From: Bacteroidota bacterium
GTDB lineage: Bacteria; Bacteroidota; Bacteroidia; Sphingobacteriales; Sphingobacteriaceae
NCBI GenBank assembly: GCA_013289045.1
Contig: JABDAU010000005.1
Coordinates: 1-64,000 of the forward strand
Direction of reading: 5' to 3'
DNA: 64,000 nt
Program-made: the position numbers and the translations under genes
The notes under the pieces: model-generated
What the model saw: the letters and a program-made list of their open reading frames with translations, nothing else
Database searches by the model: none
What the model was told of the DNA's origin: nothing
In this document: in pieces, positions 14,554-39,665 of the stretch
Layout: each line of letters begins with the position of its first letter
Position numbering within the stretch: the first letter of the stretch is position 1

Positions 14554-15981
14554 ATGAAGAAATCAATAAACATCAATGCTTATTTGCCTAATGCTGCGCG
14601 TTTATTAGCGTGTGCAATAATGGCTTGCCTGGTAACATTAACTGTTAATGGTCAGGGCCGCAGGTTCCGCAAACCGCCGCCGGCCGGGCAACCTGCCGAG
14701 ATACAGCTAACCCCTTACAAAACTACCATGCTGGGTGATGGCAAAGATACCGCGCTCATCAGCGTAAAGATCATCGACAGGGATGGTAAAGAAGTGGCCG
14801 ATGCCAAAAAGGTGATCACTTTTCATATAAATGGCGATGCGAAGATCATCAACATCCATGGCGTAACGGGAAAAAGCGGCCCGGATACGGCTTTGCAGGT
14901 GCCTGTTACCGGAGGCTGCTGGGTAGTATTGCAGGCAGGCCCTACTCGAGGCATCATCAAACTGGATGTAACAGCAGATACTTTATGGAAAGGGTCGACC
15001 GAGATCCATACCGTACAGCCCGGCACGCCTCACCCGGTTACCACTGCCAATTACACGCCACATAAGGTAAAAGACAAAGTTTTAGGCGCCGATATTTCCC
15101 ACCTGCCTGAATTGGAAGCGCACGGGATGAAATTTTCGGATAATGGTGTTCAGGGCGATGCCATCGCGATCATGAAGGCGCATGGGTTTAATTATATCCG
15201 CCTGCGGATATTTAATGAGCCGGCGAACCCGAAAGGCTATTCACCCAAATTAGGCTTTTGCGACCTGGCGCATACCATGGCTATGGCCAAACGCATAAAG
15301 GCAGCAGGCATGAAATTCCTGCTTGATTTCCATTACAGCGATTACTGGGCCGATCCGCAGCAGCAGAATAAACCGCTGGCATGGGTTGGCGAAGATTTTC
15401 CTTCGCTTAACAAATCGCTTTACGACTGGACGGTCAAGGTAATGACCTCGCTGAAAGACCAGGGCACCACGCCCGATATGGTACAAGTGGGCAACGAAAT
15501 AAACCACGGCATGGACTGGCCCGATGGCGAGATCGGTAACCTCGACAGCCTGGCGCAGCTGATCTATTCGGGGGTAAAAGGAGTACGTGAGGTAAGTCCG
15601 TCGACCATTATTATGCTGCACATAGCGCTTGGCGGTCAGAATGCCGAGGCACGCTTCTTTGTGGATAATATGCTTGCGCGTAAGGTTCCTTTTGATGTGA
15701 TAGGCCTCTCCTATTATCCAAAATGGCACGGCACGCCTGAGGATCTTAAAAATAATATGGCTGATCTCTCAACCCGCTATAAACAACAAGTGATGGTAGC
15801 GGAATACTCGCAACTGAAAAAGGAGGTGAACGATATTGCGTTTACCGCGCCGGGCAAAAAGGGTGTTGGCTCATTCATTTGGGAACCGATAAACAGCTGG
15901 GAAGGTATTTTCGACAGGGACGGGAAAGCTAACCAGTTTATGAATGTGTACGACGGATTGGCGAAGGAATATGTGAAGTAG
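14554..15981 (+). CDS. glycoside hydrolase family 53 (arabinogalactan endo-beta-1,4-galactanase) with N-terminal Ig-like domain
   Basis: GADISHLPELEAHGMKF, FNYIRLRIFNEP, FLLDFHYSDYWADPQQQNKPLAW, VQVGNEINHGMDWP, VAEYS. Confidence 0.9.
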   Translation: MKKSININAYLPNAARLLACAIMACLVTLTVNGQGRRFRKPPPAGQPAEIQLTPYKTTMLGDGKDTALISVKIIDRDGKEVADAKKVITFHINGDAKIINIHGVTGKSGPDTALQVPVTGGCWVVLQAGPTRGIIKLDVTADTLWKGSTEIHTVQPGTPHPVTTANYTPHKVKDKVLGADISHLPELEAHGMKFSDNGVQGDAIAIMKAHGFNYIRLRIFNEPANPKGYSPKLGFCDLAHTMAMAKRIKAAGMKFLLDFHYSDYWADPQQQNKPLAWVGEDFPSLNKSLYDWTVKVMTSLKDQGTTPDMVQVGNEINHGMDWPDGEIGNLDSLAQLIYSGVKGVREVSPSTIIMLHIALGGQNAEARFFVDNMLARKVPFDVIGLSYYPKWHGTPEDLKNNMADLSTRYKQQVMVAEYSQLKKEVNDIAFTAPGKKGVGSFIWEPINSWEGIFDRDGKANQFMNVYDGLAKEYVK

Positions 15982-16136
15982 GTGGGGAGTGATTGGTGGG
16001 TAGTAGAATTACTTTGCGACTACCCGCGTTAGATTCTGTGTTAATATGCAAGTATTGAATTGATTTTTTTATTTTTGAGACTTAAGGCGGCTTTATGTCA
16101 GCCTGTTTAGGGCAGTCCTTCTATGAGGTGACTGCT

Positions 16137-17168
16137 CTAACTATTTTCGACCATTTCCTGTAAATAGCCTTTTTGATAAGGCTTATTGGTTTTGTAAATC
16201 GTGTAGGCCATTTCCAATAGTTTTCTTTGCACAGCTACTGCACCTTTCATTTTTATGCCGTTCCGGGATACCACCCTAACGAATACGGCCTTATACCTTT
16301 CAGAATGTCTTATGGCGGACAATGCAGGCAGGTGCATAGCCTTCCGCAGATGTTTATTCCCCCGTTTTGATATTTTGGGTTTGCCTTTGACCGAAGTGCC
16401 TGATTCTTTTTCCCTGACATCCAACCCGGCATAGCTGGTCAGTTGCTTTTTGCTCCGGATCAGTTCAAACCCGTTGGTCTCTGCCAGGATCACTGCTGCT
16501 GTCAGCAATCCGATACCGGGGATAGTGGTGATCATATCAAGCGCTGCTTTGACCCCCTTATCATTATTTATGGCTCCCCTGATCTCTGTCAATACCTCTT
16601 TGAGCTGGCCATCGACCATCTTTATCCTGTCCTGCATTCTGCGGATGGTATCATCTCCCGGAAAAGCTTCCGATAGTTCAGCATGTAACTGATTCTTGAT
16701 GATGGTTCTCTCCGTAACGAGCTGTGAGCGCTCACGGGTCAGTTGCCGCAGGCTTCTATATACCCGTTTTGGCGGCACCCAGTTATCCAGTTGCTTTTCC
16801 ATCCCGAACATGGCTATGGCCGCCGACATGGATTTGTCCGTTACCGTTTTGATTTCCAGTGTCCTGAAAAAGTTAGATATCTTATTGGGCATAACGATAC
16901 TGACCGAATAGCTTTTATCGAAAAGATAATAAGCCAGTGATTCATGATAAACACCAGTGGCCTCCATGACAAACCGCAACGGATAAGCTTGGTCAGTATG
17001 CTTGCTTATCCAGCTTATAAGCGCCATAAAACCACCTTTAGTATTGGCAAAAGTCTTATTTGCATATACAGTCATTGCTGCCATATCATCCATTTTGCCT
17101 AAGGATACCACTAACTCTTTTTGGGCTACATCGATACCCACTACCTGTTTTAATAACCTGTTTGTCAT
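16137..17168 (-). CDS. IS110-family transposase (DEDD N-terminal + Transposase_20-type C-terminal)
   Basis: VVGIDVAQKELVVSLG, FVMEATGVYHESLAYYL, TTIPGIGLLTAAVILAETN, LTSYAGLDVREKESGTSVKGKPKISKRGNKHLRKAM. Confidence 0.96.
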   Translation of the reverse strand: MTNRLLKQVVGIDVAQKELVVSLGKMDDMAAMTVYANKTFANTKGGFMALISWISKHTDQAYPLRFVMEATGVYHESLAYYLFDKSYSVSIVMPNKISNFFRTLEIKTVTDKSMSAAIAMFGMEKQLDNWVPPKRVYRSLRQLTRERSQLVTERTIIKNQLHAELSEAFPGDDTIRRMQDRIKMVDGQLKEVLTEIRGAINNDKGVKAALDMITTIPGIGLLTAAVILAETNGFELIRSKKQLTSYAGLDVREKESGTSVKGKPKISKRGNKHLRKAMHLPALSAIRHSERYKAVFVRVVSRNGIKMKGAVAVQRKLLEMAYTIYKTNKPYQKGYLQEMVENS

Positions 17169-17199
17169 TGATAAAAGTGTTTGAGCTTTTATAAGTGAA

Positions 17200-17365
17200 A
17201 ACCTTTCTTCGTCGTTCCTCCTGTCTGGTTATCCTGGATATACTGCTTAGCCGTATTCCTTACATTCTGTTCCAACTCAAAAAAGTAAAAGGATGAGGCT
17301 TTATCTAACGCTCAACATGCCTGTAGCTGTTTGGGATTGCTGCGCTCTCATCCTTTTCACTCATA
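17200..17365 (-). ncRNA. candidate bridge RNA of the IS110 element
   Basis: 11-bp stem AAAAGGATGAG/CTCATCCTTTT (17347-17357 / 17287-17297) enclosing GCAATCCC (17333-17340) and GCGTTAGAT (17303-17311), which match the two target halves; downstream ACAGAAT (17264-17270) and AGGAG (17218-17222) match the two element ends; exact RNA ends not determined. Confidence 0.75.
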
Positions 17366-17400
17366 AAATCTATGCAATATTATGCTTTTACAAACATAGG

Positions 17401-17475
17401 AGGGATAGTAGTGGAAAGCCCGGAGCGCAGCGAGGACTTGCAACGGATAGCCCGACCCACAGGGGAACGCCCTAA
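17401..17475 (+). repeat. dispersed repeat family C (possible Flavo-1-like), distal part split from its head by the IS110 insertion
   Basis: GGATAGTAGTGGAAAGCCCGGAGCGCAGCGAGGACTTGCAACGGATAGCCCGACCCACAGGGGAACGCCC; head CCCGCGTTAG at 16023-16032. Confidence 0.7.
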
Positions 17476-17516: not shown

Positions 17517-17544
17517 GGGGATGAAGTGATTTTTTCGATAATCA

Positions 17545-17575
17545 GACTTACGAAGTTTTAAAAACTTCGTAAGTC
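17545..17575. repeat. palindrome family A, copy 3
   Basis: GACTTACGAAGTTTTAAAAACTTCGTAAGTC. Confidence 0.9.
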
Positions 17576-27175: not shown

Positions 27176-27285
27176 GGGCGTTGCCACAGCCTGCGCTGAG
27201 GCCCTCGAAGCGGCCCGCGCTATCCGTTCATACTGCACGAGGCCTTAGCCGCGAGGCCGGTATCCACTACTATCGCTAACGCGGG
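27176..27285 (-). repeat. dispersed repeat family C, inverted copy with intact head CTATCGCTAACGCGGG
   Basis: Reverse complement begins CCCGCGTTAGCGATAGTAGTGGATACCGGCC and ends GGCAACGCCC. Confidence 0.75.
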
Positions 27286-31789: not shown

Positions 31790-31873
31790 GCGTTAGGGGT
31801 AGTAGCGGGTACCGGCCTCGCGCTTAATGCCTGAAGGCGTATGAGCGGATAACCCGGGCCGCAGGCAACGCCC
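31790..31873 (+). repeat. dispersed repeat family C copy
   Basis: GCGTTAGGGGTAGTAGCGGGTACCGGCC...GCGTATGAGCGGATAACCCGGGCCGCAGGCAACGCCC. Confidence 0.75.
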
Positions 31874-39582: not shown

Positions 39583-39665
39583 GCGTTAGGGATTGCAGCG
39601 GATACCGGCCAAGCGCCTAAGGCCTGTGCAGTATGAGCGTAAAGCCCGGCCGCAGGCAACGCCCT
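39583..39665 (+). repeat. dispersed repeat family C copy; head GCGTTAGGGATTGC is the unoccupied best match to the IS110 guides
   Basis: GCGTTAGGGATTGCAGCGGATACCGGCC...GTATGAGCGTAAAGCCCGGCCGCAGGCAACGCCC. Confidence 0.8.

What the first reader, a model, noticed from the sequence alone, without database searches (positions are those of the whole stretch)
16023..17475. IS insertion splits a dispersed repeat; the pre-insertion repeat can be reconstructed
Joining CCCGCGTT-AG (16023-16032) to GGATAGTAGTGGAAAGCCC (17403 on) gives CCCGCGTTAGGGATAGTAGTGG. Intact copies read CCCGCGTTAGCGATAGTAGTGG (27176-27285, reverse strand), CCGCGTTAGGGATTGCAGCGG (39581 on) and GCGTTAGGGGTAGTAGCGG (31790 on). The IS therefore targets a repetitive extragenic element, paralleling the known targeting of REP sequences by IS621 and some other IS110/IS1111 members.
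Basis: partly seen in the sequence, partly recalled or inferred. Interest (0 to 1): 0.7.

Follow-up and report, generated by a model that had tools for sequence, protein, structure and literature searches.

The report
RNA-guided IS110 element splitting Flavo-1-like repeat
A jumping gene in a Mucilaginibacter genome has inserted into one copy of a short repeat scattered through that genome, almost certainly because it carries a guide RNA matching the repeat; this is a known mechanism, but the enzyme belongs to a large Bacteroidota branch that lacks a catalytic residue shown to be essential in the best-studied relative.

Summary
Confirmed and extended. The element is an IS110-group IS, 16033-17402 (1370 bp), present once in a Mucilaginibacter MAG. 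It splits an ~80-bp extragenic repeat (GCGTTAG^GGATAG...GGGAACGCCC) that scores just under threshold for Rfam Flavo-1. An intact copy elsewhere in the genome matches the rejoined site across the junction (98% over 81 bp). The repeat core occurs 46 times in the MAG against 0 for a reversed control. The IS encodes a bridge RNA upstream of its transposase (96.5% paired over 35 relatives, 32 of 42 pairs covarying). Its target loop carries AGCAATCCC and GAGCGTTAG, which match the repeat. Across 34 distinct guides, guide and target covary strongly (right guide 90-97% match to own target, about 30% to others). A 71%-identical relative in M. lappiensis, where this repeat core is absent, carries another guide and sits in another abundant repeat. 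So RNA-guided repeat targeting is strongly inferred, not assayed. Not shown: an orthologous empty allele, transcription or recombination. The window site is imperfect for the guide (5/8). Unexpected: the 45-sequence clade uniformly lacks the fourth DEDD acid (IS621 D105, essential there), although its members are multicopy.

The parts
16023..16032 (+). Left half of the split repeat with flank (CCCGCGTTAG); the repeat proper starts at 16026; the AG at 16031-16032 is the core (CT on the minus strand)
   Evidence: same junction in relatives
16033..17402 (-). IS110-group insertion sequence, 1370 bp, single copy in the MAG; minus-strand ends CTCCTATGTTT...ACACAGAAT
16137..17168 (-). Recombinase/transposase, 343 aa; RuvC-like and Tnp domains; D13, E69, D111 present, fourth DEDD acid replaced by M114; Ser-Gly of the Tnp domain conserved
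17185..17360 (-). Predicted bridge RNA in the left end (two internal-loop stems)
17333..17341 (-). Left target guide AGCAATCCC (target-binding loop, 5' side)
17305..17313 (-). Right target guide GAGCGTTAG (target-binding loop, 3' side), complementary to CTAACGC
17262..17271 (-). Left donor guide AACAGAATGT (donor-binding loop), invariant in relatives, matches the right-end terminus ACAGAAT
   Evidence: plus sequence
17218..17223 (-). Right donor guide CAGGAG, complementary to the left-end start CTCCT; AGGAG invariant in relatives
   Evidence: plus sequence
17403..17471 (+). Right part of the split Flavo-1-related repeat, ending GGGAACGCCC
27176..27285 (-). Intact repeat copy (GGATACCGG sub-type)
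31790..31872 (+). Intact repeat copy
39583..39663 (+). Intact repeat copy carrying GCGTTAGGGATTGC, identical to the guide over the core-proximal positions (GCAATCC|CTAACGC on the other strand), unoccupied

Best explanation
The element is an IS110-group insertion sequence that inserted by bridge-RNA-guided recombination into one copy of a dispersed, extragenic Flavo-1-related repeat. Its upstream non-coding end encodes a bridge RNA. The target loop (AGCAATCCC / GAGCGTTAG) pairs with the two strands of the repeat around a CT core, and the donor loop pairs with the element's own joined ends (ACAGAAT-CT-CCTATG). The recombinase then exchanges strands at CT, leaving the repeat cut as GCGTTAG^GGATAG. 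Shown here: gene, ends, core, reconstructed site, RNA covariation, guide-target covariation. Inferred from IS621: RNA expression, circular intermediate, strand exchange. Relatives carry guides for other dispersed repeats, so the strategy appears to be landing in high-copy non-coding repeats.
For: Pfam PF01548 and PF02371 above cut-off. ISCro4 and IS621 are the best PDB matches by sequence (1.4e-36, 3e-34) and by predicted fold. Intact paralogous site 98% identical across the junction. Repeat 46 vs 0 control, found in 130 of 150 genus genomes. Guide-target covariation: right guide 4.89 of 6 own vs 1.85 permuted, 0 of 20000 permutations; left guide 5.85 of 8 vs 3.34, permuted maximum 3.97. Bridge RNA fold: 96.5% of cells paired, 32 of 42 pairs with double changes, 0 of 500 shuffles. 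Same-orientation junctions ending in |CTAACGC in seven loci. A 71%-identical relative in M. lappiensis, which has 0 copies of this repeat core, carries another guide and sits in GTTYCTCCTCGCAATGAC, found 26 times vs 0 control.
Against: The left guide matches the window's own site at only 5 of 8 positions, while sites with a better match (GCGTTAGGGATTGC) are vacant in the same MAG. The M. gossypii relative with the same guide has 7 of 8. The recombinase lacks the fourth DEDD acid (M114). Only one copy in the MAG, and no orthologous empty allele, so movement of this copy was not seen.
Confidence: 0.93

Rival explanations
1. Chance landing: the IS inserts with little specificity and fell in a repeat by accident.
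For: Only one copy in this MAG, and the left guide is imperfect at this site.
Against: Other species have the same repeat cut at the same dinucleotide in the same orientation. Guides covary with targets in relatives.
Confidence: 0.02
2. The recombinase protein, not an RNA, recognises the repeat (as proposed for IS1397-type elements of other families).
For: Targets look consistent within close relatives.
Against: Elements with closely related recombinases (71-77% identity) use different targets and differ in the guide loops accordingly. The right guide tracks the target at 90-97% per position.
Confidence: 0.03
3. The junctions are a product of recombination between repeat copies or of misassembly in the MAG, not of IS insertion.
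For: It is a 63% complete MAG with 172 contigs.
Against: The flanking genes (GH53-like enzyme and Ku) are neighbours in three other species, so the flanks belong together; both halves make one repeat with a duplicated CT core.
Confidence: 0.02

Closest known systems
IS621 (IS110 group, E. coli) with bridge RNA (PMC11208160, PMC11208158)
   Same: RuvC-like plus Tnp protein, CT core, bridge RNA in the left end with target loop before donor loop, guides for both strands, target is a dispersed extragenic repeat
   Different: About 25-28% identical over the fold alignment; different repeat; the fourth DEDD acid (D105), essential in IS621, is Met here and absent in the whole clade; right guide here covaries over 5 positions beyond the core
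ISCro4 (IS110 group, solved structure 9t56)
   Same: Best sequence and fold match in the PDB
   Different: Has D at +3 after the third acid; this element has M
REP-targeting ISs ISPpu9, ISPpu10, ISPa11, ISRm19 (PMC1525189) and seekRNA elements (PMC11187229)
   Same: IS110/IS1111 elements splitting genomic repeats, recognised by rejoining flanks; natural re-programming described
   Different: Proteobacterial REPs; ISPa11 is treated as IS1111 with the RNA downstream of the gene
Flavo-1 RNA, Rfam RF01705 (PMC2864571)
   Same: The split repeat aligns end to end with the model, 38.6 bits, E 1.1e-4 in the window search; another MAG copy reaches 42.0 bits
   Different: Below the gathering score of 42 at the window locus; most copies of the repeat belong to other sub-types the model does not find

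Membership tests
IS110 family, IS110 group | PF01548 (RuvC-like) and PF02371 (Tnp) domains | tested here: met
   85.8 and 90 bits, both above curated cut-offs
IS110 family, IS110 group | DEDD acidic tetrad | tested here: not met
   D13, E69, D111 present; fourth position is M114; 0 of 45 clade members have D there. Filed as a variant clade by homology and fold, not as a canonical DEDD member
IS110 family, IS110 group | Conserved catalytic serine in the Tnp domain | tested here: met
   S256-G257 invariant in 16 relatives; Ser-Gly also in the distant members
IS110 family, IS110 group | Long left end carrying a bridge RNA with two internal loops | tested here: met
   234-nt LE vs 107-nt RE; covarying fold
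IS110 family, IS110 group | Guide loops match target and donor around a core dinucleotide | tested here: met
   Target loop: covariation. Donor loop: sequence match only, both sides invariant
IS110 family, IS110 group | Circular intermediate and RNA bound by the recombinase | not testable with these tools
   Needs bench work
IS1111 group | Guide RNA downstream of the gene, long subterminal inverted repeats | tested here: not met
   RNA is upstream; right end only 107 nt; subterminal inverted repeats were not searched for separately
Flavo-1 RNA (RF01705) | Score at or above the curated gathering score | tested here: not met
   38.6 against 42 at this locus; one other MAG copy at 42.0: related, not a certified member
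REP element in the RAYT sense | Short palindrome flanking or tied to a RAYT (Y1_Tnp) gene | tested here: inconclusive
   Y1_Tnp genes exist in 7 of 9 genomes, but no copy of the repeat's 5' core flanks any of the 12 loci read; isolated short fragments resembling its 3' part only

The most novel reading that the evidence does not exclude
A whole Bacteroidota clade of bridge-RNA recombinases works without the fourth RuvC acid that is essential in IS621, possibly using a relocated acid six residues before the third one (E/D in 44 of 45 clade members, window E105; mostly G, N, L or S outside), while its guides are repeatedly re-aimed at whichever extragenic repeat is abundant in the host.
Probability: 0.6. 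Interest if true: 0.7.

Novelty: new variant of a known kind. Interest (0 to 1): 0.5.

Why it matters
It gives a clean natural example of RNA-guided transposition into a dispersed repeat in Bacteroidota, and shows one way Flavo-1-like repeats get disrupted. The set of elements, with near-identical architecture but different guides each matching a different target, allows a direct test of how IS110 elements switch targets. The clade-wide loss of a catalytic acid reported as essential in IS621, in elements that are evidently still moving, challenges the current picture of the composite active site and could supply structurally different bridge recombinases.

Tried and rejected
Orthologous empty allele: flanking genes are syntenic in three other species, but their intergenic DNA lacks both IS and repeat, so only the paralogous empty site is available. 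Rfam: no family matched the bridge RNA region at E up to 1, only Flavo-1 and a chance microRNA hit. RAYT link: not found. Left-guide test in a fixed register gave a weaker signal (3.93 vs 2.19 of 8) because the loop register shifts by one nucleotide in many members; a test with free register, applied equally to permutations, was used. IS1111 membership considered and rejected. Literature: no paper in the held library names IS110 with Mucilaginibacter or with DEDD and Bacteroid*; this is a limited library and does not prove absence.

Full report
WHAT IS THERE. The window is the first 64 kb of an 83-kb contig of a 3.75-Mb, 63.5% complete MAG. Named genomes in the same genus group include Mucilaginibacter gossypii and M. 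lappiensis, so I call it Mucilaginibacter. Between a GH53-like glycosidase gene (14554-15981) and a Ku gene (from 17674; both named from the sequence and own knowledge) lies a 343-aa transposase gene on the minus strand, 16137-17168. It has the two IS110 domains, PF01548 and PF02371, above curated cut-offs. DNA relatives at 71-77% identity fix the ends exactly: read on the transposase strand the element is CTCCTATGTTT...ACACAGAAT and is followed by CT. The element is therefore 16033-17402, with the CT core (AG on +) duplicated at its edges. It is present once in the MAG.

THE SPLIT REPEAT. An intact copy on another contig matches the rejoined site at 98% over 81 bp, through the junction; its core is identical. 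Reading 30-odd copies shows the full unit: GCGTTAGSGATWG..., a variable middle of three sub-types, then ...CCGCAGGCAACGCCC, about 75-130 bp, with GCGTT and AACGC at the two ends. In the window it ends at 17471. The core GCGTTAGSGATWG occurs 46 times in the MAG against 0 for the reversed pattern and in 130 of 150 genomes of the genus, with very different copy numbers. All window copies lie outside ORFs of 100 aa or more. The sub-type that was hit aligns end to end with Rfam Flavo-1 (38.6 bits, gathering score 42), and one MAG copy reaches 42.0. It is thus a Flavo-1-related dispersed repeat. A link to RAYT genes was looked for and not found, so I avoid calling it a REP in the strict sense.

THE GUIDE RNA. 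The left end of the element, upstream of the gene, is 234 nt and the right end 107 nt. Aligning this region from 35 relatives gives a consensus of two stems with internal loops: 42 pairs, 96.5% of cells paired, 32 pairs with changes on both sides, 0 of 500 shuffles reaching any measure, and sliding the partners by 1-3 columns drops pairing to 45-51%. This is the layout of an IS621-type bridge RNA (PMC11208160): first loop for the target, second for the donor. In the first loop the window element has AGCAATCCC and GAGCGTTAG. The second is the complement of CTAACGC, the right half of the repeat. The first matches the repeat variant TGCAATCC|CT. The second loop has invariant ACAGAAT and AGGAG, matching the element's own joined ends ACAGAAT-CT-CCTATG (and sequence).

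COVARIATION. For 34 distinct guides with their own insertion sites, the right guide matches its own target at 90-97% per position for five positions beyond the core, against 28-37% for other elements' targets (mean 4.89 of 6 vs 1.85 permuted, 0 of 20000). The left guide, with register free in both real and permuted pairs, gives 5.85 of 8 against 3.34 (permuted maximum 3.97 in 1000). These are counts over related elements, not independent events, but the contrast is large and the permutation keeps base composition.

RETARGETING. Seven loci end in |CTAACGC in the same orientation. Elements 74-77% identical to the window one, in M. gossypii and G107, sit in the same repeat with left guides AGCAATCC and ACCTATCC, each matching its own copy at 7 of 8. 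The M. lappiensis relative (71%) has guides for another sequence (left GTTACTCC, right TTTGCG) and sits in another repeat. In that genome the window's repeat core is absent (0 copies), while the repeat it does use occurs 26 times against 0 control. In G043 the target CGACCCTCTCT of another relative occurs 35 times against 0; in G126 it occurs 10 times against 2, and in G054, which also carries such a relative, this exact 11-mer is absent. A more distant relative (L033, 56% protein identity, placed elsewhere in the tree) also carries a CTAACGC guide, and a deeply diverged canonical clade (G122, three copies) inserts in the same repeat family at another point, GCGGATAG^CCCGGGCC. Inference: these elements repeatedly acquire guides for extragenic repeats common in the host, which is safe for the host and offers many landing sites.

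WEAK POINTS. At the window site the left guide matches only 5 of 8 positions, although better-matching copies (GCGTTAGGGATTGC, for example 39583) are vacant in the same MAG. Either mismatches are tolerated, or the guide or the site drifted after insertion. No allele of this very locus without the IS was found; three other species keep the two flanking genes as neighbours but have unrelated intergenic DNA, which at least shows that the flanks belong together and are not an assembly chimera.

AN UNEXPECTED FEATURE. Aligned without gaps to ISCro4, the third acid of the DEDD tetrad is D111, but the fourth (IS621 D105) is M114. In 45 distinct recombinases at least 49% identical to it, none has D there: A 26, C 11, M 6, S 2; the 12 more distant IS110 proteins that can be scored all have D. 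The 45 form one group in the tree when rooted on the Deinococcus sequence (support 0.60 at its base, long branch). They come from Sphingobacteriaceae, Chitinophagaceae and Maribacter assemblies. In IS621, mutation of D11, E60, D102, D105 or S241 abolished recombination (PMC11208158). Yet clade members are multicopy with different flanks, for example five in G009 and five in G164, so they move. Six residues before the third acid the clade has E or D in 44 of 45 (window E105), where outside proteins mostly have G, N, L or S; whether this replaces the lost acid is a guess.

VERDICT. As an IS110 element in a repeat it is a new member of a known kind; the altered catalytic set makes the clade a variant worth testing.

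Noticed in passing
16827-16838 (codons D111 to M114, minus strand): Clade-wide absence of the fourth DEDD acid (0 of 45) with E/D six residues before the third acid in 44 of 45; elements still multicopy.
   Followed up: partly
17539-17575: A near-perfect palindrome (CTTACGAAGTTTTAAAAACTTCGTAAG) next to the split repeat; identical or near-identical 35-37 bp stretches turn up in dozens of genomes of the genus, so it is a second, unrelated dispersed palindromic repeat.
   Followed up: no
L083, L086, L104 (G000:C8, C9, C40): The repeat sometimes occurs as back-to-back inverted pairs about 115 bp apart, sharing an upstream GGTTCAGACAAA-like stretch, one copy each of two sub-types: a composite element.
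   Followed up: partly
L137, L138, L139 (G122): A deeply diverged canonical DEDD IS110 has three copies in the same repeat family at a different internal site (GCGGATAG^CCCGGGCC).
   Followed up: partly
L033 / L147 (G105:C42): A 56%-identical element on another branch also targets CTAACGC: apparently independent acquisition of a guide for the same repeat.
   Followed up: partly
L004, L005, L110 (M. lappiensis): Another dispersed repeat, GTTYCTCCTCGCAATGAC, 26 copies, is the target of a 71%-identical element.
   Followed up: yes
L062 (G377:C13): The left end carries a second CTCCTATGTTT about 100 bp upstream with part of a bridge-RNA loop, perhaps a remnant of a nested or tandem copy.
   Followed up: no
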